The notes under the pieces were generated by a model, which was not told the origin of the DNA, ran no database searches, and was given only the letters and a program-made list of their open reading frames with translations. A stretch of 64,000 bases of DNA from NCBI GenBank assembly GCA_020543525.1, contig JAHYIO010000003.1, positions 3,534,001 through 3,598,000 on the forward strand. Reading direction: 5' to 3'. Both the position numbers and the translations under genes were made by a program. Each line of letters begins with the position of its first letter. The stretch's first letter is position 1. This DNA is from Coriolopsis trogii (Eukaryota; Basidiomycota; Agaricomycetes; Polyporales; Polyporaceae). Positions 3,814-59,060 of the stretch are shown piece by piece.

Positions 3814-3822
3814 GACTTGAAC
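3814..3822. repeat. Left 9-bp target-site duplication
   Basis: The sequence GACTTGAAC lies immediately outside the left terminal inverted repeat. It recurs exactly at 9781-9789, immediately outside the right one. A perfect 9-bp duplication is expected of a cut-and-paste insertion. Confidence 0.93.
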
Positions 3823-4092
3823 CAGGCTCCTAACCAGCCAGCCTTGCGTCGTCGTTCAACTATATCCTAGTTGCGAGGGTCGAGAATTCGAGCGTAGCGT
3901 ATACAGGAACGTAGCAGTACGTAGCCCATGTGAATCTCAGCCACTTGTATTTGAAGGACCGATCAAGTCAGACTGATGGGTCCGGCTATATTTCGCGCTC
4001 CGATACACAGGCTTGAAACTCCTAAACCTTAGACTTTGAAGACGACGCAAGGCAGGCTGGCAAACTATGTCGTGTGAAAGCTTGGTCAGCTT
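3823..4092 (+). repeat. Left terminal inverted repeat of the transposon
   Basis: The outer block 3823-3886 matches the reverse complement of 9717-9780, and the inner block 3959-4092 matches the reverse complement of 9502-9635, with no mismatch that I can find. The 20-mer at 3834-3853 recurs inverted at 4041-4060 with one mismatch. Each repeat therefore contains a small inverted pair that could be a protein-binding site or fold as a hairpin. Confidence 0.92.
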
Positions 4093-4183
4093 CGCGTGCC
4101 ACAGTGCAATGCTCCCGAGCAGCAGTGAGCTTCGAAGTTCCCAGCACCTGATCTTCACGTCACGGCTGTCGCTTGTCAACTCT

Positions 4184-6723
4184 ATGCCTGCTTCGGTTCC
4201 CTGCACTCTTTCTGACGATGACATCCGCCGCGAGACAAGACGGGTCTTCAATAAAACCCCATGCCAATTCCAAATTCGTGTCTGTCGTGCCCAGTTGGAG
4301 AGACGAAACGTTATCAGTATCGCACCGACAGGTTCCGGGAAGACCTTGTCGTACTTCATGACACTTGCATTCGCTCAAGAATCGGTGATCATACTTGTGA
4401 CTGCCCTGAATGTCCTAGGCGAGCAGTTTGTGCGGGAGGCGAGGGGAGCAGGATTTCCGGCAGTCTTTGTTAATGCAGAGAATAATCACAATGCCACTTT
4501 TACCGTGCGTACTTGCTACTGTCTGAGCCACATTTGCCCAATGGTCGTTGCAAGCATAGGCAATCCAACAATTGAAGTACCGCGTTGTCGTTATCAATCC
4601 GGGCATTCTAGTGGAACGAAATGGGCGTTGTGCAAGATTTCTGTGGTCGAACAAGGTGTTCATGGCGGAACTCCAAAACATCATATTTGATGAAGCTCAT
4701 TGCATAGTGCAGTGGGGCAACACATTCCGCGTGGAATACAAGGAGGCTACAAATGTTCTCTGGCTGATACCTAATATCCCGATCTGCCTCTCGTCAGCTA
4801 CCATACCCGGTCCCATGCTAGTCGAACTTGTTGAGAAGTTTCGCTTTGGCTCGGACTACACGCTGTTCCACCGGTCCAATGACCGATACAACATCGCATA
4901 TGCTGTTGTCAAAATGAAACATGCTCAGAACTCCTATGAAGATCTCGCCTTCCTGGTGCCTCGGGACTGGAAGGAAGGTGATGCGCCACCGGCAAAGTTC
5001 ATGGTGTTTTTTGACAGCAAACGGGAGGCCGAGCAGGCTTCTAAATATCTCGCGGGAAGGGTATCTTTATTGCTCCGCATGAAGATACCCTGGTTCCATG
5101 CGAGTATGACAAAGTTTTTCTGTGTTGAGGAGGTGGCAAACTTCTCGGATGGAGGGACTTGGGGCCTGGCGGCTACAGATTGTGGCGGTATGGTAAGTAG
5201 AGTGGTTTCGATGCATGTTTGCTATATTAAATTAACCACGATATACAGGGACTGGACATAAGAGACATCATGATCATTGTCCAGTGGCGTGTTCCAAAGG
5301 ACATGAATACCATGATGCAGCGTTTCAGGCGCGCAGCACGGGATCCATCTATACAGGGTGTTGCAATTCTAATCGCCGAGCCACACTGGTTCTATGATGA
5401 ATTGGTCAAGAAGCAGGCACGCCAGACCAGAAAGAGGTTGCGTGAAGCTGAGAGGAGGAGCGCTGCAAAGCGGAGGAGATTGGGCAGACTAACCTGCGGT
5501 ACGTCTCAGGCTCCAGTATTTCAGCGTTCAAAGCCTGCATTCTAAAACTGATTATCTTGTAGCCTTGGGTGCTGCTCAGAATGCTGCCGTGCCAGAATTC
5601 GTATTCAGACCAGGACCAGTGGTCAGCGGAGGAGCGGGAGCGGAGGAGGTGCGTTCTGATGAAGATGCAAGCGCAAGCGAGGATGAAGATGGCGCAGGTC
5701 AAGACACTGAAGATCAGCCAGCTTCAAGAAGTGGACCTCTGAGCGAAAAGCAAGTGGAATCTGTTCTATTCGATGAGGACGGGCAGCCACGGGCACAGAG
5801 AGCAAGTACAGCGAAGGGCAAGACACGTAGCCGGCGCTCGAAGCCTGTTGAGCGCGAAGTCTGCCTTCTTACAAATGCTGACGTTCTTAGCGGTAGGAAG
5901 CGTTGCCGCCGCTATCATTTCAACGAGTTCTTCTCCAACGACAAGGCTGGTACGCTCACTCTCTACTTCATGCTCTCTGGACGAGCTTCTGACTATTCTC
6001 ATGCCTCAGTCCCTGATCCTGTTATCTGTTGCAACCGGTGCACTCCCAACAGGGCTGCAATCTGCTGCGACCTCTGCGACCCTACTACAGTTATGTTGAT
6101 GATTCCAGCTCACAACGACTCACCATCCACCCTTTCACGCACTGCAACTCAGACCAAGATCCCGCCTTATGAACCTACGTCAGGGGACAAGGCTTTACGT
6201 CAAGCCCTTCACCAATGGCGCGAGAACAAGGGTCGGTCTCTATACGGAGGGTTCGACTTGTACGGTCCGGATCTCTTCATGCACTTCTGGATTGTCAACC
6301 GCATCGTCGATCTTGCTCACAGCCATAAGCTGGAGAGCATAGACGATCTCGAGGCTCAGACAAAGTGGTGTTTTGCTCAAGACTACGGTGCGGAGATCGT
6401 TGAGCTTGTCCGCACCCATTGTCCCAAACCCTCCCTCCCTTTACCATTTATCACCACCCCATTGGCTGCTTGCTCCCGGGAGAACCAGTCAGGACTGCAA
6501 CAGCCAAACTCCCCCCTCGCAAACCGAACCCGGCGGGCATCACCAACATGCAGTGCTTGTGGACAAAAGGGTCATCGAAGTGAGTGATTTAGTACAGACA
6601 CATCCCCTCATTTTCTTATCTTTTCATTCCTCTGCAGAGAACAGCCCGCATTGTCAGAACAAACGGAACGACACAACTTGTGGCACGGAGAACCACCCAT
6701 CAGCTCCGGCAGCAGAGGCTTAG
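4184..6723 (+). CDS. RecQ-like SF2 DNA helicase with zinc-knuckle tail, transposon-encoded
   Basis: Five exons (4184-4504, 4560-5192, 5249-5498, 5563-6579, 6638-6723) join in frame to 768 aa. Visible helicase motifs, in order, are Walker A APTGSGKT (residues 47-54), the DEAH box (151-154), SSAT (185-188), ATDCGGMGLDI (motif V, across the third exon boundary) and motif VI read as QRFRRAARD (342-350). RecQ proteins usually have QxxGRAGRD in motif VI, so one or two glycines are replaced. Residues 400-480 are acidic and low-complexity. The C-terminus has C731, C734, H739 and C746, a CX2CX4HX6C zinc-knuckle-like motif completed only after the last splice. The ATG at 4184 lies just inside the left inverted repeat and precedes a family-typical N-terminus. 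No RQC or HRDC domain is visible. Inference: it assists excision, repair or copying of the element. Confidence 0.88.
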
Positions 6724-6754
6724 TGAGTTCATGAAATACAGGTTGATCTATGTC

Positions 6755-9433
6755 TCATGCATCAACGGCTTCTAGATCATCTAGCTCAACAACATCTCCG
6801 TCCACTTCATCTGCAGTCCCATCGATGCCCTCGCCCTCGGTGGTCTCTGTGCTGTTGCCGCCCTTTGTTGTAGTTTGTAGAATATATGCCCCATCTCGAA
6901 GATGATCGTCCAACAATACATCTGCAGCTCGTTGCGGTGTGAATGAATGACAACCATGTTTCTCTAACTGATCTCGAAGGATGTTGATCGTGTTTGTGAT
7001 GTTCGGAGGTGCGTGGCGGACAGAACGGTGCAGAAGATGAAAGCTGTCTTGAAATATCGTATGTACCTTCCTGAACAGTTCGATCAGCGGCGACTGTTTC
7101 AGTATGAGCTCGAATGTCCGGGTGTAGCCTGAGCTGCCGTACACAACTTTCGTAAACAGATTCATCAGTTCAACGAGCCAGTCTACAGCGCGAAAACCAT
7201 CAGGTCTGCCAGTCGGGTTGCACAGCCAATTCAGGCGTATGGCACGCCTATTCAGCGACGAAATGGTGAGTACATGGTACCAATTGAACACATGTTAAGA
7301 CAGAGTACTTACGCAAGCCGGGGAGGATAGACATGATTGAGGTCGTTCATGATGTGCACAAGCTCGGATGCGTACTTGTGTTTGCCGACCTTCTTGAACA
7401 CACAGACCCAATGGATGAACGTCCGCTCGACGCGTCCAATGTCTCCAAACTTCATGGCATCACAGAGTTCCAGATAGAATAGAAGACGGCCAAGGATTAG
7501 AGAGGAGTTACGGAACTCCCCGTCTGTTGACAACCGCTGGTCGACGTAGTTGGAGACAAGGCGGAGAGACATAGCCTCGAGGTCCTCCCAGGACGGATCG
7601 GATGCTGCGAACTCCTCCAGAGAGGTACATGTTCTGGTAGATTTCGCAGCTTCTACCCGCCATACGTCGAGCATCCGAGCAGCTGCGCATTGGTGGATGA
7701 TATCATGAACGAGGCGGTAACCGGGCTTGCTCCCAATCCGTCCAGAGTCGTGAGGTCGAATCTTGCATGCATGCTGATAGAGGCTGTTTGGGTCTGCGCG
7801 GAGGCTCTTCGGTTCGATGAACATCCTCCAGATAGCATCGGCGCATGCCATTTGAAGATGGAAAAGCCCGAGGACGAAAATGACAAACTGCAGTCGACGC
7901 CCCCCTGTAGACTCGATAGACCGTGACTGCTTGATACCCTGTATGCGCTCCCCGGTCCCAAGATCACCGTGGAAGAGCAGCACGCTATCGTCAAGGTCGT
8001 GGACACCGGGATAATCGGCTGGATCACCTAAACCGGCCTGCGACAATAACTCCTCGATGATTCGTGCCTGCCCATCGTGTGTAGACTGGTTGATATCCAT
8101 AGCGCGGCACGGGACATGCGTAGTTCGCTTGACTGGGATTTGTAGTACCGTCTCCGGTCGTCCGAGCTTGTCTCGATAGCGCTCGAAAGCCCCACAATGT
8201 GAGACAAGAGCGTTGCGGAAGTGCCATGCCAGAAGTCGCGTCTCGAGGTTCGGGCCGGACGTGCTTTCAGGCGGCGGTAAGCAGTCTATCCACGTTCTCC
8301 GGGGTCGGCGTTGGTGTTTAGGTATGAATGGATTGGAAGGGTCGCTACTCCACAGCTCAGCTGAGCACTGAAGATCGCTGGGTACAACACCATGCTCCAA
8401 AGGAAAGATAAGGGCGGACGTAGCGTGCTGTAAAGTTGATCCGGATCTCTCTACTGTCGGCAGCCAGGACTTGAAATCCATGTCGAAGTTGTCGTATGCG
8501 AATGCAGCTGCGAGAGTCTGCGCAAGCCGGCGTATAGCTTCGGAGGAGTTGCGGGAGAGGGAGTTGATCATGTCGTGTATGGCGGTCAAGGAAATCGACA
8601 GTCCAGCATGGGCAAGGACCTCTATCAAGAGCTCGGGCGCAGATGTAGAATGACAGAAGAGCCCAATGAGGCTCGGAATCGCATTACATTGCTGGTTCGT
8701 ACTAAACATGATGATTGAGATGATCATGACGAGTCTCTGCATCAGAGGCGATTAGTTCAGTCAATGCATGCGGAAAACGCACACTCACAATACGATGAAT
8801 AGCAGCGCCACGATTAGCTGCGCGTCGCTGCCGCTTGGAGGGACGATCCTCGGGATTTTCAGCACTCGAGCTGCGAGACTCGTCTCCGTCTTCCAGTCCA
8901 TCGGTGGTGTTCTCATTTTCCAACTGTGCCCAATACTCATCCTCGTCGTCCATGTTAGAGCCATGTCCAGGGTGACCGGCTTGCGATGCTCTAGAAGAGC
9001 GGTCCCGGTCGACATCTCCACCAGCGCGGCGCCGAGCGCGCCCCGGATCGCTCACCAGGAGTGTACTGAGAGCTCTCCATAGAGCGGGAGCCTCAGTCTC
9101 GAGCGTCTGTGCCATCCCCTCAAGTGAGAACGCGTGAACTTGATCGGCTTTGGCATGGCGTGCGCTGAAATGCCACCCGGTTTCTTTCTTGACAAGCTTG
9201 CGGACCTCTTCAGTGAGGGTCTTGACCGTGTACTCGAGGCAGAAAGAGGTGACTAGAGGACAAAGGCAAGCTAGTGATAGGAAGAAGCCAAGCAGCTCAG
9301 TGAACTCTGCGAGGAATTGGTGCCGGAGAGGAGCATCATGATAAGCAGGATCAGAGAGCAGAACAACTAAGAATTGGCCAATGCTGAATGTTCCGAAGGC
9401 AGCGACAACGCGATCCACAGCGGTCCGATCCAT
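6755..9433 (-). CDS. DUF6589-like protein, candidate transposase of the element
   Basis: Three exons (9433-8789, 8736-7313, 7247-6755) join in frame to 853 aa. From memory of the family, residues about 216-850 resemble DUF6589 proteins of Agaricomycetes: YDNFDMDF (296-303), HGDLGTGE (471-478), FHLQMACADAIW (507-518) and GDIGRVER..GKHKYASEL (646-674). I know of no assigned function. The position inside intact inverted repeats next to a helicase makes a transposase the natural reading. Conserved acidic residues D297/D300/D302, D473 and D647/E652 could form an RNase H-like catalytic set, but this is inference. The N-terminal 215 residues are basic and Ser/Arg-rich, perhaps DNA-binding. The ATG at 9433 is the first after the right inverted repeat; an in-frame ATG at 9520 lies within that repeat and is less likely. 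The tail is acidic (EVDGDVVELDDLEAVDA). Confidence 0.82.
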
Positions 9434-9501
9434 GTCGACGAGGAAGACGCGTCGGACGCGTCGACGTCGCTGTATACGCGAGACGCGTCCTACTTTGCAC
9501 C

Positions 9502-9780
9502 AAGCTGACCAAGCTTTCACACGACATAGTTTGCCAGCCTGCCTTGCGTCGTCTTCAAAGTCTAAGGTTTAGGAGTTTCAAGCCTGTGTATCGGAGCGCG
9601 AAATATAGCCGGACCCATCAGTCTGACTTGATCGGACATTGAGTACTAGTGGCTGATATTCTCGTACTACTAGTACAGATTCCACCGAAGTACTCTACTC
9701 CACCTCCACATCCCATTTCTCGACCCTCGCAACTAGGATATAGTTGAACGACGACGCAAGGCTGGCTGGTTAGGAGCCTG
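9502..9780 (-). repeat. Right terminal inverted repeat of the transposon
   Basis: This is the mirror of 3823-4092: inner block 9502-9635 (134 bp) and outer block 9717-9780 (64 bp), both identical to the left end. The 20-mers at 9534-9553 and 9750-9769 repeat the internal inverted pair seen in the left repeat. The intervening 81 bp have diverged from the left copy and differ in length. Confidence 0.92.
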
Positions 9781-9789
9781 GACTTGAAC
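9781..9789. repeat. Right 9-bp target-site duplication
   Basis: GACTTGAAC follows directly on the outermost base of the right inverted repeat, identical to 3814-3822. Confidence 0.93.
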
Positions 9790-13436: not shown

Positions 13437-15889
13437 TCAAGAAAACGCTCCAGGCGCTCGGTACTCGAACTGCTGCGTCTGTGCCGAGCCCCACACGGCA
13501 TGCGCCCCAATATGGTCCGCGCCCGGACCTCCGGCCGCCTGGTGTGTCAAGAAATCCAAGCACCGGCTCGCATCGCGCCTCTTCAGCAGGTCCAGCGTCG
13601 GAATCCACTCGTCTGCGAACATAGTCGCGTCAGCATGATGGGTCATAACTGTATTGACAGCCACTCACGTTGTGCGGTCCCGTTCCGGACGCTGGTCCAC
13701 GAGTTTGAGCTCGCGTACCTGCTGTCCAGCTCGCGAGCCGTGATGCGCTTCGCAGGGTCGACCTCGAGCATCTGCGATGAGAGCATGACGTCAGTCTCAT
13801 TGTGCATATGCATAACAGCATCGGCGACGCCGAGGGCAGACGTGGACGCACCGATCGCACGATATTGGCAAATACCGGGTCAAAGCCGCTAGGGACCTGG
13901 AACGCCACGGGGAGCTTCTTGCCGTGTTCCTGCTGGATCGCCTGCAGGCTCTCGGACGAGAAATACCGCGTGGAGGTGAACATGAGGATCTCGAGGAACA
14001 CGAGACCGAGGCTCCACACGTCGACGGCGGACCCGTAGGACTCGGTGCGGACCATCTCCGGCGCCATGTACGCATACGTGCCCGAGTAGGCCTCGCGTCG
14101 CCAAGTCTCGAACTCGTCGACCGGCACTTTTTGAGCCATGCCAAAGTCGGTGAGGACGGCCTGACCGCGAAAGTTGATGAGGATGTTCCCGGGTTTGATG
14201 TCACGGTGGACGATGCCGATGTCGCGCAGCGCGCAGAGGGCACAAATCTGCACACAGCATGGACGGAAATGGAGAAGGTTAGGTGGCCGCAGCAACGGGT
14301 ACGACAGTCGGACAACTCACGAGCTCCTGACAATACATGTAACGATCCTTTAGCGTCATGGGCTGACGTGTCTTGAGCGCATTGAACATGTCGATCGGAC
14401 ACACCGGCTAGAAGGGGTCATTCCGAATGTCAGCAGGCCGACCAAGCATCAACGGGGGAAATCGCGATCTCACCATGACGAAGAATATCCTTCCTGGGCT
14501 TCCGTAGCTCTCTTCCTCCCACGACATCAACAAGGGCACGAAGAACTGACGACTCGACCGGCTGTGCGAGGTGGCGACCATGAGATCCTTCTCGCGCAAG
14601 AAATTGTCGCGATGGGAATGGGCGCGCTTCGCGCGTCCTTGGTGGATGGCCTTGATAGCATACAGTCGGCCGGCGTGCTCGCCGAGCACGACGCGCCCTG
14701 CGGAGCCTTCTCCGAGTATATGCGTAATGTTGAAGATGATGCCATCGTGGTCAATCTGGTAAGGGCGGCGTGGAGCGGCGTTCGGATATGTGATTGCGTG
14801 CGGTAGGAAGGGATTCCGGCTGACGTACACGGGCGGTTGGGGTGGAAACTGGACAGCCGAGAGAGACGGATATCGGTGCTGGACGACAGCTTGGAGGCGT
14901 TGAGTAGGACGTGCGGAGGGGGCTGCGTACTCGCTCGGCGCTGCGTCAGCGAGCGAGACCGGGAAGGAAGCGAAGTGGCGGAAGAGAGGGTCCGTCTGCG
15001 CGGCTCGGCCGCTGTCCGCACGCCGACGGTCTTGGCCCGCAGCGCGTACTGCAGCCAACTGCTCCCGATTTGGAAATGGTCTCGGTCTATGCGTCGTCGG
15101 CCGTACACGGTGCACCGGCCGCGATGAGGCCTCGCATCGAGGCACGTTCCCGGGCTGGCCACTCATCGCGCGCCCGACCTCAATCCATGCGGGCGCTGGG
15201 ACAGCGTGCCTTGCGGATGGGGTGTAGATAGGTGCGTGGAGGTGAGATGGCCCAGGGAGTGACTGCTGCCATGTGCGCAGTGCTGTTGGATCGATGGTAG
15301 CGCCATTGAGCGATTCCTTGTAGTCGAGTATCGCGTTATTCGGGAGGCGGGGTTGGAGGTATGCATATGCAGCCGGCGGAAGTGCGTCCGACGGCCATTG
15401 AGGAGGTGGCCCGCGACACGATGTCGATTGTGCGGGTGGCTCGGGGTATCCGTATTGTGCATTCAGAAACGTACGGGGCGGAGCTGCTGGATCTGGATGA
15501 TTGGCGACGGCAGAGTCCTGGAACACCTCTCGAGGATATTGCGTGTTGTCGTACGGCGGGAGTGGGAGCCCTAGGAAGAAGTCCATGGGAGAGGGAGAGG
15601 GTGGTGGCAGAGGGGAAGATGGCGGCGGAGAGGAAGGAGGAGAGGGAGTATATGACAGGCTCGGTGGCGGGGCAGGGACATTGTGGCATCTCGGATGACG
15701 AGGAAGCGCGCCGGAGAGGGCGGTAGTCCAGTGGCGTGTGTGTGTTCTCAGTGACAAAGCGGGCAGCTGCAGTAATCGCGTCAAGTCCACATGTCGGTGG
15801 CCTGCATCATCTTCCCTTGTGTCTTCCGCACAAAGCAGATCCGCCTCGTTGCTGGGCCGTGGGCTGGCGTGAAGGCTGCTTGCCGACAT
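13437..15889 (-). CDS. Protein kinase, long disordered N-terminus (tandem copy 1)
   Basis: A Ser/Thr-type kinase with an intact catalytic core. Exon 1 ends at 14474; further exons are 14407-14321, 14247-about 13850, then two C-terminal exons ending at 13437. Motifs seen are the glycine loop LGEGSAGRVVLGE, the lysine in LYAIKAI, HRDIKPGN, TDFGMAQ and YMAPE. The N-terminal part is long, Pro/Ser-rich and probably disordered. Start choice is uncertain: the ATG at 15889 has a TATATAT stretch about 80 bp upstream (15967-15975), whereas the ATG at 15586 begins a less biased sequence. The C-terminus (DEWIP...FEYRAPGAFS) matches that of the next kinase (DEWKP...FEHRVPGIFT), so the two are paralogs. 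Substrate and pathway are unknown. Confidence 0.85.
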
Positions 15890-17182: not shown

Positions 17183-19519
17183 TCAAGTGAAGATGCCCGG
17201 AACGCGGTGCTCGAACTCCTTCGGGTCTAACATCGCACCGCACTGCGGCTGCACCCTCTTGCAGCCGTCAAAGGCGAGGTAGTAGTGGCACCGCAGCGAA
17301 TCTTCTGGCTCGGCGGGTGCCAGGTTCGGCTTCCACTCGTCTGCGCAGCAAGACGTCCAGCATAAGCATACATACGATCAGACACCTTCATTGGATCACT
17401 CACGGCTCGTCGTTCCGCCCCGGACGCCCGCCCATTCTACCGATCGCACAAACCGGTCATCGAGCTCGCGCACCGTGATGCGCTTCTCCGGGTCGACCTC
17501 GAGCATCTGTCGGAACACATAGTCAGTCTCCACATCAGAGCAACGTTTCGGAGGAGATGCGACGCACATCAGTCAGCAGCTGGTACATCAGCTCCGAGCC
17601 CAGAGACTCGAAGACGGCCGGATTGAAGGGCAGTCTCTGTGCATGTTTCTGGCGCACGCTGTCCATGTCGAGGGCATGGAATAGGGATAATCCATCAAGG
17701 ATGAAACCCATAATGTCGCAGAAGACGACGCCCATGCTGAAGACGTCCGCGTTCGTCGTAAAGCCCTTCACCGACATGTCCACCGCAGCGACCTCGGGAG
17801 CAAGATAGCTGCACGTCCCGGAGCGCACGTAGAGCCTGCGGTCCTCGTACTCGTAGTACGGGACGGACTGCGCCGTGCCGAAGTCGGTGAGGACCGCACG
17901 TCCATTGGCGTCGACGAGGACATTGGCCGGTTTGAGGTCGCAGTGCATGATTCCGAGACGACGCAGCTCGGTTAGAGCGCAGACCTATCACAGTGGCGAT
18001 CAGTGAGCACACGTGTCTGGTGTCAGAACGGATGCGTACCAGTTCCTGGCACCAGAGAATGCGATCGGCCCTCGAGATCGGGAACTGGTCCTGGTTCCAG
18101 AGGATGGTCAAGAGGTCAGGACCGTGCTGGGGCTGCAGAATACACACGCCACAATGAGCGAAAACGCGACACATCTCATACAGTGAAGTCACCCACCATG
18201 AGGAAGTACACCTTGTCGTCGCTCACGTCCTCCCAGGACATGAGCAATCCCACCAGATGGCTCTTGACCTGCCCGTGGACCGCCGCCAGCATACCGATCG
18301 CGCCCATCGCCATCTTCTCCCCCAGAAAATGTGCACGCTTGTACCCATGGGCAGTAGCCACGCCCTTCTGAACGACCTTCAGGGCGAACACCTTCCCCGT
18401 CCGACTGTGGCGCACGCTCACGACCCGGCTTTCGCTCCCGCCCCCAAGGATATGCGTCGGGACGAACGCTTCGCCGGCGTGCACGATGGAGGTGGTGGAG
18501 GGGCGCGGACTGCCGATGGGAGAGTACCGGGGCGGAGGAGTGTCCGAGAGGGACTTGGAGATGCGTGGCGGGGTGTACACTTCGTCGTCCGGGTCGGCGA
18601 ACTCTGCGCGGCGAGAGACCCATGGCGTAGGCTGCTTCAGAGCATCGAATTTAGAGAGCGGATGGGTGACAGGGCCAGAGGCGAGTGGCGTGAGGGTCTT
18701 GGGGCCATTGAGGACGGGTAGGACCATGGAGGGCCAGCAGAGAGCGGGCATGGCAGACTTTGGGGCGGGTGAAGACCAGCCGTCCGTGACGGTAGTTGGC
18801 TCGACAAATGACGGGGAACGGGAACCGACGCCACACCGCAGAGAAAAGGACGACGCCACCGAGGGGTACAAACCCAGACCATACACCGACGACTGCGATG
18901 ATTGATTGTATCTGTAACCAGGTCGATGAATGGGAGTAGGAGCTTCGAGCTGAGGGCCAGTGTGGACGAGAGGAGACGAAAATCCGGACGAAGGGTCGAG
19001 TGGCGTGAGGGACTCGGAAGGGGAGGGAGACCGGAGGTCCGTAACCAACGTGCCTGTTCGGTTGACCTCCGACAACGGGTAATACCACCCTGACGGGGTC
19101 TTAACCAACCTTACATCTTTCAAGGCCTTGATGGTGCGCTCAACCTGCACAGGGCTCGGGATGGGGCTGACATCGGGGAGGGACAGCCAGGTACAGGCTG
19201 GCGAGGAGGCACGGAGCCCTACAGTGGTTGTGAGCCCGTAGGGAGTGGGAGGGAAAGAAGTGTTCGAGGTGGTGGACTCGCTGGTCGTCGAGCTCATCGC
19301 AGGAGACCAACCACGAGCGACGTGGCGAGAGTGGCTCACGCCACCGCCGGGAGCGCGAGCCCAGTGGCGTTCTTGGTCGTCGACCAGGAGTGACCCTCCA
19401 GCCATGGTAGCAGGGCCGCTGCGACACTTCAAAGGCCTATCAAATGGTAGGGGAGGGGTGTCGCGGCATGGAGAGGTGTCGCGTGAAAGGGACGAGTTGA
19501 GGAGGGTAAGCGCAGACAT
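17183..19519 (-). CDS. Protein kinase, non-RD type (tandem copy 2)
   Basis: Paralog of the downstream kinase, same strand. Exon 1 runs from 19519 to just inside FLM near 18198. Later exons carry PQHGPDLLTILWNQDQF, then VCALTELRRLGI, and the C-terminal end stops at 17183. The catalytic loop reads MHCDLKPANVLV, so the usual Arg of HRD is Cys. The glycine loop is LGGGSESRVV, lacking the third glycine. The ATP-binding Lys (FALKVV), TDFGTAQ and LAPEV are kept. It is therefore probably a non-RD kinase, either active without activation-loop phosphorylation or weakened. The N-terminal 300 residues are Ser/Pro-rich. A TATA box lies about 50 bp before the ATG. The tail matches copy 1. Confidence 0.86.
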
Positions 19520-26260: not shown

Positions 26261-26772
26261 AGAACAGCGGTATTGTAGGTAAGGCCTGAGGACCGAGTCC
26301 GTGAGTATGGTATACAGGACGCTGAGAGTCTCCTGCCCATCAGGAATCGCATGAGAGCACATACGCCAGTTCGCGAGGTGCGAGGGGAGCGGAGAATGGG
26401 CGAGCGGGTGCATCAAGCAGCGGCTCGGTTGCGATCCACGTGGACGTAGAGGTATAGCGCAGAGCGCGATATGGTGGACGCGGCAGTCGTACATGAGAGC
26501 CATGAATCGCGGGTGCAACTATGACACCCCAGGAATGACGTAGGTTGGCATGGGTATGTGTGGTAGGATTGTGTCGCTCGGGTACGGAGTCCCGCGTCTG
26601 CAGTCTGACGGGACCCGGCAGTCGCTCCATGTGAGCCAGCCGTCCTGGCGGGGGGGGGGGGGGGGGGGCGTAGCACGCCACAAATGTGAGCGGAGGCCGG
26701 AGGGATGCATCCGGATGGGTGGTAGGGTAGTGTCGCTCGGGTACGGAGTCTGCGAGCTCGCGAGTTCCGCAT

Positions 26773-26979
26773 TTACAGCCCGAAGATCTTCTTCAGGCCA
26801 GACTTGGTCGTCTTCCTCTGCGTCGTGCGGCCGTTCGTGGGGCGCAGCACCTGGCGTGCGTCCTCATACATGTGGTATGTCTCACGTGGAGACTGTGTGG
26901 AGGTGAAGAGCGCAAACGCATTCGGAGATGCAGGGCTGGCAGCGAAGAAGGTGGCGGGAGAGTTCGAGGAGTAAGACAT
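26773..26979 (-). CDS. 68-aa conserved microprotein, copy 1
   Basis: The frame starts MSYSSNSPATFFAASPASPN and ends KSGLKKIFGL. I recognise no family. The N-terminal two thirds are Ser/Pro/Ala/Phe-rich; the middle YHMYEDARQVL is a likely helix; the tail is basic with a hydrophobic end. There is no signal peptide, no CaaX box and no cysteine. Compared with the copy at 50318, most nucleotide differences are synonymous (about nine synonymous to four replacement by my count), so the peptide is under constraint. A TATA box lies about 115 bp upstream. An in-frame upstream ATG would extend it, but the extension is not conserved. Function unknown. Confidence 0.8.
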   Translation of the reverse strand: MSYSSNSPATFFAASPASPNAFALFTSTQSPRETYHMYEDARQVLRPTNGRTTQRKTTKSGLKKIFGL

Positions 26980-27088
26980 CGTGGATAGTAGTGCTCGGTG
27001 GTGCGACGAGAGTGGTAGGGCGAGCGAAAGATGTCTACAGGACGCTGAGAGACTCGAGGAGTGTTGAGGACTCCATGTCAAGGAAACA

Positions 27089-27096
27089 TGCGTTAT
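27089..27096 (-). promoter_or_regulatory. TATA box of microprotein copy 1
   Basis: The minus strand reads CTATATAACGC, about 115 bp before the ATG at 26979. The same sequence occurs at matching distance in the other two copies. Confidence 0.6.
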
Positions 27097-27449
27097 ATAG
27101 CGGCGTAAATAGCGTTGATTGCACCAGTAGCGAACTCAGACTGATGGGCGCAGGATGAGCGTGAAGGTGAAGTGTCCTTCGAGCAACCGGAGGGGCGAGA
27201 GCACACAGAAAGTTGCCATTCCAAGGAATTGTTGGTGTGCGCGCAAACATAAACACACAGTCGCACACATACAGCGGGCCGTTACCAAGATACGCGTCGC
27301 CCACAGAGACAGACAGAGGCCAGAAAGCGATCGAGGGACACGAACATGCAGCGATGTACATTGTAATGCATGGACAGGATGAGAGACGCCCGCAAAGATT
27401 GTTTGGCTTCCACCCGAGACCAAACAAACCCACGTGAGTACGGCGCTTC

Positions 27450-49633: not shown

Positions 49634-50187
49634 TAGAGCCCCTCTCATACCATCAGAATCATGTCCATCTTGAAGTTGTATACCACTCATACATCATGCT
49701 ATTCTCCGCTCCGAATCGAACGCGAAGTTCAGAGACTCACAACCTGAGCTAAGGCTTGCAAGAGTTCACGGCTAAACAGTGCAAGAGAAACTGTTAGAAG
49801 TCGAAAGTGCTCGGGCATGGTCAGTCACAGAAGTGTACTTGGAGTTGCGTCCACGTGGATGTATTTGTCCTTCACGTGAGACACAAACAATCGTTACGGG
49901 CGTCTCTACACTGTCTGTGTGTTTCTGCATTGTCGTTGCATCTTCGTGGTCCCTCACTCGCTTTCTGGCCTGTCTGTCTCTGTGGGTGACGCGTATCTTG
50001 GCAACGGCTTGGGTTGAGTGTGTGACTGTGTAGCTATGTTTGCGCTAAAGCAACAATTCCTTCATATGGCAGCTTCCTGTGTGCTCTCGCCCCTCCGATT
50101 GCTCCAAGGACACTTCATCTCCACTCATCCTCCGCCCATCAGTCTGAGTTCGTTTCTGGTGCAATCGCCGCTATCTGTGCTCCTATA

Positions 50188-50195
50188 TAACGCAT
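50188..50195 (+). promoter_or_regulatory. TATA box of microprotein copy 2
   Basis: CTATATAACGC lies about 125 bp upstream of the ATG at 50318, as in the other copies. Confidence 0.6.
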
Positions 50196-50317
50196 GTGTT
50201 CTTGACATGGATTCCCCATCACTCATCGAGTCTCTCAGCGTCCTGTAGACATCCAGCTTTCGCTCGCCTTATAATATATTACCACTCTCGTCGCACAACC
50301 GAGCACTACTCTTCGCG

Positions 50318-50524
50318 ATGTCTTACTCCTCGAATTCTCCCACCACCTTCTTTGCTGCCGTCCCTGCATCTCCGAATGCGTTTGCGCTCTTCACCTCCAC
50401 GCAGTCTCCACGTGAGACATATCACATGTACGAGGACGCACGCCAGGTCCTGCGTCCCGCCAACGGCCGCACGGCGCAGAGGAAGACGACCAAGTCCGGC
50501 CTGAAGAAGATCTTTGGGCTGTAG
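50318..50524 (+). CDS. 68-aa conserved microprotein, copy 2
   Basis: Same length and frame as the copies at 26773 and 58155, differing from copy 1 at four residues (for example SPTTFFAAVP for SPATFFAASP, and RPANGRTAQ for RPTNGRTTQ). The block FALFTSTQSPRETYHMYEDA and the end KKIFGL are unchanged. It stands alone on the plus strand with its own TATA box. No homologous domain is known to me. Confidence 0.8.
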   Translation: MSYSSNSPTTFFAAVPASPNAFALFTSTQSPRETYHMYEDARQVLRPANGRTAQRKTTKSGLKKIFGL

Positions 50525-50860
50525 ATGCGCCAGTCCATGATTTGTGGACTCGAGCCGCACTACCCTCCCACCCTGCCGCTGCCGCCCTCAGCCCTACACT
50601 CACTTTGTGGTCGCTACGCAGTTGCGCTCTACGTCGATGCCTATGTCGACTTTTGCGCAGTCTCTAGGCCGTGATCCATCATCGCTTCGTGTCGTCCCGA
50701 TTCGGGTGACTGGATCGCACGGAGCAACAACCCTATCCACCATCTGAGCGGTGCATACGCCCTCGACCTTTCGCCGTTGCTTCATGCACCCGCTCGTTCA
50801 TCCGCCGTAGGGCTCGCATCGACCGAGCCGGCAGCTGGTCTCCTGTGATCCTGATGGATG

Positions 50861-57879: not shown

Positions 57880-58154
57880 AGTCTCCTATCCATCAGGATC
57901 TCTGGAGAGTGCGTAGGCCAGCTCGCGAGACGCGAGGGAGTTGGCGGATGGGCGAGCGGGTGCTTCAAGGAGCGGCTCGGTGGTGGTGGACGTAGATGTC
58001 GAGGGATAGCGCAGCGCGCAATGTGGTGGCGCGGCAGTCGCTACGTGCGAGCCAGTGGTTCTGGGTGCGACAGAGGCACCCTTCGGAATGACGTAGGGGC
58101 GCAACAGTGGGTGGCTGCTCGGGTACGGAGTCCGCGAGCTATGGGGTGGCGCGT

Positions 58155-58361
58155 CTACAGCCCGAAGATCTTCTTCAGGCTGGACTTGGTCGTCTTCTTC
58201 TGCGCCGTGCGGCCGTTGACGGGACGCAGGACCTGGCGTGCGTCCTCGTACATGTGGTGTGTCTCACGTGGAGACTGGGTGGAGGCGAAGAGCGCGAACG
58301 CGTTCGGAGATGCGGGGCCGGCAGCAAAGAAGGAGGCGGGAGAGTTCGAGGAGTAAGACAT
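58155..58361 (-). CDS. 68-aa conserved microprotein, copy 3
   Basis: Starts MSYSSNSPASFFAAGPASPN and ends KSSLKKIFGL. It has the same length and frame as the other two copies, with more replacements (FALFASTQ for FALFTSTQ, ETHHMYED for ETYHMYED, KKTTKSS for RKTTKSG). All are conservative or in low-complexity positions. A TATA box lies about 120 bp upstream. Confidence 0.8.
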   Translation of the reverse strand: MSYSSNSPASFFAAGPASPNAFALFASTQSPRETHHMYEDARQVLRPVNGRTAQKKTTKSSLKKIFGL

Positions 58362-58481
58362 CGTAGATAGTGCTACTCGGTTGTAGGACGAGAGTGGTAA
58401 GGCGAGCGAAAGCTGGATGTCCACGGGACGCTGAGAGACTCGATGAGTGATGGGGAATCCATGTCAAGGACACATGCGTTA

Positions 58482-58489
58482 TATAGGAG
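58482..58489 (-). promoter_or_regulatory. TATA box of microprotein copy 3
   Basis: The minus strand reads CTATATAACGC about 120 bp before the ATG at 58361. Confidence 0.6.
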
Positions 58490-59060
58490 CACAGATAGCG
58501 TCGATTGCACCAGTAGCGAACTCAGAGTGATGGGCGCAGGATGAGCGTGGAGGTGGAGTGTCCTTGGAGGAATCGGAGGGGCGAGAGCACACAGAAAGCT
58601 GCCATTCCAAGGAATTGTTGATGTGCGCGCAAACATAACCGCACAATCGCACACATACAGCGAGCCGTTGCCAAGATACGCGTCACCCACAGAGACAGAC
58701 AGGCCAGAAAGCGAGGACAGTGGACACGATCCAAAATGCGGCGACAATGCAGAAACACAGACAGTGTAGAGACGCCCGTAGACGATTGTTTGTCTTCCGC
58801 TAAGGACCAAACAAACCCACGTGAGCCCAGCGCTCTAGTCTGCACGCAATTGAGCGTTCGAACCGTAACTTAGGGTGGCAATTCTAAGTTTGTAAGCAGA
58901 AGTTTGATCTCCGACCACGCGTCGAGATCTGTACGCGCCTACGCGTCGACGCGTCGCGCGTGCGCTTAGCTTGCGTTCTTCCTGCGATACCCTCGTACTC
59001 GACTGCTCACGCGTCAGGCTACGCTATGTGCCCCTAATACTAGACTACACACTTAATAAA

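What the first reader, a model, noticed from the sequence alone, without database searches (positions are those of the whole stretch)
3814..9789. Intact two-gene DNA transposon pairing a RecQ-like helicase with a DUF6589-like protein
Seen: identical inverted terminal blocks (64 and 134 bp), a perfect 9-bp target duplication GACTTGAAC and two complete spliced genes that face each other. Known: 9-bp duplications and long inverted repeats are Mutator-like traits. I know of no described superfamily whose own genes are a RecQ-type helicase and a DUF6589 protein. Inference: this is an autonomous, recently active member of an undescribed transposon group that brings its own helicase.
Basis: partly seen in the sequence, partly recalled or inferred. 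Interest (0 to 1): 0.92.

Follow-up and report, generated by a model that had tools for sequence, protein, structure and literature searches.

The report
Jumping gene carrying a RecQ-type helicase
This stretch of a fungal genome is a nearly complete cut-and-paste transposon carrying a probable cutting enzyme and a DNA helicase; it fits a kind already described (AcademH), and it suggests that the protein family catalogued as 'DUF6589, unknown function' is its transposase.

Summary
A 5,958-bp element (3823-9780) lies between perfect 9-bp duplications, with long inverted ends and two convergent spliced genes: a 768-aa RecQ-type helicase and an 853-aa DUF6589 protein. In the same genome a 14-base end motif has 49 hits (5 in the control); 38 form 19 inverted pairs, all examined: 15 perfect 9-bp duplications, 2 with one mismatch, 1 with two, 1 none. 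Six helicase+DUF6589 elements (five of one lineage, one of a second, deep lineage) have both ends located; all six have perfect, different 9-bp duplications. The predicted fold of a DUF6589 relative matches DDE transposases (Hermes, P element, ISCth4, RAG1, Tn5), and a D-D-E triad is nearly invariant. So this is one transposon with its own helicase. The claim of an undescribed group is not supported: DDE transposons with a helicase and 9-10 bp duplications are known as AcademH (Kojima 2020). No Academ transposase sequence could be compared, so the name rests on architecture. 'Intact' is qualified: helicase motif VI has R where 27 of 27 alignable relatives have G. Extras: most first-lineage ends hold an inverted second copy of their terminal motif; one gene-less relative carries a P450 segment.

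The parts
3814..3822 (.). left 9-bp target site duplication GACTTGAAC
3823..4092 (+). left terminal inverted repeat (270 bp; 64 + 134 bp identical to the right end, about 70 bp divergent between)
3834..3859 (+). outer terminal motif (positions 12-37 of the end), candidate transposase binding site (inferred)
4036..4060 (-). inner, inverted copy of the terminal motif (positions 214-238 of the left end)
   Evidence: 0 of 1000 shuffles score as high
4184..6723 (+). RecQ-type SF2 helicase gene, 5 exons, 768 aa; motif VI QRFRRAARD; a C-terminal CxxCx4H zinc-knuckle-like stretch that is variable or gapped in relatives
6755..9433 (-). DUF6589 protein gene, 3 exons, 853 aa: inferred DDE transposase (triad D297, D473, E716)
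9502..9780 (-). right terminal inverted repeat (279 bp) with its own inner inverted motif (positions 223-247 of the end)
9781..9789 (.). right 9-bp target site duplication GACTTGAAC

Best explanation
A two-gene cut-and-paste DNA transposon that works like, and most probably is, an AcademH element. Shown: the 9-bp duplication rule, the linkage of the two genes in this genome, the DDE-like predicted fold and the conserved triad. Inferred: the DUF6589 protein binds the terminal motif and its inverted inner copy at each end, pairs the ends, cuts them with its D-D-E centre and joins them to target strands 9 bp apart; host repair makes the duplication. The RecQ-type helicase probably opens or remodels DNA at the ends or at the gap during excision or repair. 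It is more likely part of the machinery than cargo, because two lineages whose transposases are only about 25% identical both have it. This copy may depend on other copies for helicase function.
Confidence: 0.85

Rival explanations
1. A separate, undescribed DDE superfamily defined by DUF6589 plus RecQ helicase, merely similar to AcademH in duplication length and helicase.
For: Neither DUF6589 (0 papers) nor PF20231 (1 irrelevant paper) turns up in the searched library as a transposase; no Academ sequence was compared.
Against: Trait match with AcademH: helicase, 9-10 bp TSD, Basidiomycota.
Confidence: 0.1
2. A Mutator-like element, as the 9-bp duplication and long TIRs would suggest.
For: 9-bp TSD and long TIRs.
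Against: Pfam scan of the two proteins and of 47 relatives: DUF6589 in 47 of 47, no MULE or other transposase family.
Confidence: 0.03
3. KolobokH, the other fungal transposon lineage with a RecQ helicase.
For: RecQ helicase, fungi (PMC9587614 passages).
Against: [quoted passage not shown] here two convergent genes. Kolobok TTAA duplications (recalled) are not seen.
Confidence: 0.02
4. The helicase is captured cargo, not part of the transposition machinery.
For: An element with related ends seems to have taken up host DNA (P450 segment in L034).
Confidence: 0.1

Closest known systems
AcademH (Academ superfamily; Kojima 2020, Mob DNA 11:15; seen here only through citing papers)
   Same: DDD/E transposase superfamily with a helicase; 9-10 bp TSD; reported from Basidiomycota
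   Different: Nothing shown to differ; transposase homology and terminal sequence not compared because the paper and Repbase are not held
KolobokH
   Same: fungal DNA transposon with a RecQ helicase
   [quoted passage not shown] here separate convergent genes
hAT (Hermes) and P element
   Different: 8-bp TSD (recalled) instead of 9; no helicase (recalled); 10-12% identity in the structural alignments
Mutator/MULE
   Same: 9-bp TSD and long TIR (MULE traits recalled)
   Different: no MULE domain

Membership tests
AcademH | 9 or 10 bp target site duplication | tested here: met
   15 of 19 end pairs perfect 9 bp, 18 of 19 with at most two mismatches; criterion from PMC10045372
AcademH | encodes a helicase | tested here: met
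   DEAD and Helicase_C domains, RecQ-type; criterion from PMC10045372 and PMC10799480
AcademH | DDD/E transposase | tested here: met
   fold of a relative 59% identical to the window's main exon and conserved triad; activity not shown
AcademH | transposase homologous in sequence to Academ transposases | not testable with these tools
   no Academ sequence or profile available; original paper not held
AcademH | terminal sequence and TIR as described for AcademH | not testable with these tools
   original description not held
Mutator/MULE | MULE-type transposase domain | tested here: not met
   Pfam at E up to 1 (window proteins) and 0.1 (47 relatives): DUF6589 is the only match shared by more than 2 of the 47
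[quoted passage not shown]
   two separate convergent genes; criterion from PMC9587614
KolobokH | TTAA target duplication (recalled) | tested here: not met
   9-bp duplications of differing sequence
Helitron | Rep/HUH plus PIF1 helicase, no TIR or TSD (partly recalled) | tested here: not met
   RecQ-type helicase, TIR and TSD present; no Helitron domain in the Pfam scan

The most novel reading that the evidence does not exclude
DUF6589 transposons with a RecQ helicase form their own superfamily outside Academ, in which each end carries a paired outer and inner inverted transposase site that the helicase helps to open or extrude.
Probability: 0.1. Interest if true: 0.7.

Novelty: new member of a known kind. 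Interest (0 to 1): 0.42.

Why it matters
It gives a testable function to a large family of unknown function: DUF6589 proteins, of which two searches gave 641 and 283 matches with all named listed ones from mushroom-forming fungi, are very probably DDE transposases. Many 'hypothetical proteins' beside 'P-loop' helicases in these genomes would then be transposons. It also points to two-gene copies and short copies in one genome, on which the role of a transposon-borne RecQ helicase could be tested.

Tried and rejected
Mutator, KolobokH and Helitron (see membership test). First guesses for the third catalytic residue were dropped: E in GDIGRVE is kept in 50 of 51 first-lineage but 0 of 80 second-lineage proteins, and E in YASEL is not in the consensus. 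A search for related loci in viral contigs gave 43 pattern matches and no confirmed relative. The viral structure library gave no match at E 0.001. An empty site or second haplotype was sought with both flanks: none. A looser end pattern was too unspecific to use (107 hits, 61 in the control). The inner inverted motif was not clearly found in the second lineage: for its 4 ends, 8, 26, 769 and 871 of 1000 shuffles scored as high. Literature searches beyond those cited (listings only, except the papers named) and passages of PMC12730594, PMC12210899, PMC10294476, PMC9674265 and PMC10817607 gave nothing that links DUF6589 to Academ.

Full report
What is there. The window (contig C3 of a 38.8-Mb genome) belongs to an unnamed fungus; the closest named relatives of its two proteins include Cerioporus, Lentinus and Polyporus. 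It holds an element at 3823-9780, 5,958 bp, between two copies of GACTTGAAC (3814-3822, 9781-9789). Its ends are inverted copies: 64 identical bp, about 70 divergent bp, then 134 identical bp. Two convergent genes fill it, with their ends 31 bp apart: a RecQ-type helicase (768 aa, 5 exons) and a DUF6589 protein (853 aa, 3 exons). In the PDB the helicase part (residues 1-377) is closest by sequence to WRN and BLM (best E 5e-19), with motifs TGSGKT, DEAH and SAT.

It is one of a family in the same genome. The 321-bp left end finds 15 matches, itself included, at E up to 0.001 (best candidates only). The end pattern CAGGCTCCTNMCCA has 49 hits against 5 for the reversed control. 38 of the 49 form 19 inverted pairs; I examined all 19: 15 have a perfect 9-bp duplication, 2 one mismatch (L063, L065), 1 two mismatches (L057) and 1 none (L059) (that of the C25 copy was read by eye from the flanks printed). 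The other 11 hits are single ends and were left out of that count; two of them belong to L033 and L046. Four further copies with variant ends: L034 (7 of 9), L033 (none), L036+L074 (9 of 9), L045 (9 of 9). So 17 of 23 copies with both ends examined are perfect. The duplications differ from copy to copy.

Linkage of the two genes. The DUF6589 profile has 21 matched stretches (exon pieces) in the genome, which fall into 12 loci: the window and L036-L046. Besides the window, 9 of these 11 have a helicase match in the same 10-kb stretch: L036, L037, L038, L039, L040, L041, L042, L043, L046; L044 and L045 do not. L045 is a shortened copy with a perfect TSD. For six two-gene elements both ends were located, all with perfect TSDs: window GACTTGAAC, L036+L074 TACCTGGGA, L040 ACACCGGTC, L041 AGGTCACGC, L042+L048 GTCTACTCC, L043 GATTATTCA. 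L036, with its relatives L038 and L045, belongs to a second lineage (about 23-26% identity to the window's DUF6589 protein over the main aligned stretches, ends TAGGCTCG/TAGACTCG); its end pattern has 13 hits against 1 in the control, not followed further. Against: no ends were found for L037 and L044, and only one each for L038, L039 and L046. Whether the genes of the other copies are intact was not assessed. In other fungi, 4 of the 28 best helicase hits share species and contig length with a listed DUF6589 protein (compared by eye): Hygrophoropsis aurantiaca (P0241/P0018), Cytidiella melzeri (P0244/P0027), Lyophyllum shimeji (P0248/P0021) and Gymnopilus dilepis (P0251/P0049, locus tags 001802 and 001805). 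Contig length is only an indirect sign of linkage, and only 120 hits per search are listed.

Ends. In the first lineage most ends have a second, inverted copy of their own terminal motif (positions about 12-37) further in: at about 200-247 in the window, L029 and L030, 140-166 in L039, 116-152 in L040-L043. For 16 of 18 ends tested at most 5 of 1000 dinucleotide shuffles score as high; L034L (555) and L031L (908; its end is interrupted by about 1.5 kb) fail. The 18 ends are not independent: they come from about four related groups. Motif sequences differ between groups while the inverted match is kept, which suggests a paired binding site (inference). In the second lineage 4 ends were tested and the pattern is not clear.

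Activity and integrity. L042 and L043 are 98.3% identical over 4.7 kb, and L029 and L030 97-99%, at different sites with different TSDs: recent movement in this genome (inference). For the window copy no second full-length copy of its own sequence family was found; the nearest other ends are 82-84% identical. Its helicase has R at 345 where 27 of 27 alignable relatives have G (motif VI, mostly QRFGRAAR or QRLGRAAR); otherwise it is not unusually degenerate, with 2 of 37 conserved columns changed against 0-6 in the 28 relatives. So this copy may lack helicase function; 'autonomous' is not shown.

What is known. AcademH is described by Kojima 2020 (Mob DNA 11:15), which I could not read. I saw passages of papers citing it or treating Academ: PMC10045372 states that AcademH makes 9 or 10 bp TSDs and AcademX 3 or 4, a difference that seems related to the helicase and nuclease they encode; PMC10799480 lists DEAD, Helicase_C, PIF1 and Helitron_like_N as domains from AcademH, KolobokH or Helitron, and AcademH as low-copy in Basidiomycota, Ascomycota and Mucoromycota; PMC6416283 says 81% (1,568 of 1,938) of fungal Academ copies hold recognisable domains, for example PF00270; [quoted passage not shown] PMC9587614 lists Academ among superfamilies with a DDD/E transposase. 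The architecture here fits. What I could not find in the searched library is DUF6589 or PF20231 named as a transposase (0 papers for DUF6589; 1 irrelevant paper for PF20231). I therefore file it as a probable AcademH member, new member of a known kind, with the transposase-homology test open.

Mechanism. Shown: insertion with 9-bp duplications, conserved ends, a protein with a DDE-like predicted fold and conserved triad, a linked helicase. Inferred: cut-and-paste by the DUF6589 protein on paired end motifs; helicase assistance in opening DNA or in repair. The tie between helicase and longer duplications (AcademH against AcademX) is a suggestion in PMC10045372, not tested here.

Noticed in passing
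L034:2669-6840 (C5:1522669-1526840): A 4.2-kb copy with related ends and a 7-of-9 duplication shows no similarity to either gene but carries a 2.95-kb stretch with cytochrome P450 pieces (PF00067, E 1.2e-11 and 0.0064), 89% identical to C20 from 797711 on, where the strict end pattern has no hit: possible capture of host DNA; direction not shown.
   Followed up: partly
C25:282404-292691 (L031, L032): A 10.3-kb copy with a perfect AGGCGCAGG duplication is enlarged by a 640-bp direct repeat pair (99%) about 6.9 kb apart next to its right end, as from a nested LTR retrotransposon.
   Followed up: partly
window 26346-27316, 49957-50551 (inverted), 57898-58715: Three copies of a stretch of about 0.6-1 kb, 77-95% alike, in the rest of the window: a repeated gene or dispersed repeat.
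   Followed up: no
window 14408-15889 and 18176-19519 (-): Two proline/serine-rich ORFs end in protein-kinase-like glycine-loop stretches (HILGEGSAGRVVLGEHAGRLYAIKAI; HILGGGSESRVVSVRHSRTGKVFALKVV); named by eye, no profile run.
   Followed up: no
C7:996415-996505: A 91-bp inverted pair of the family's ends with a 7-of-9 duplication: almost nothing but the ends.
   Followed up: no
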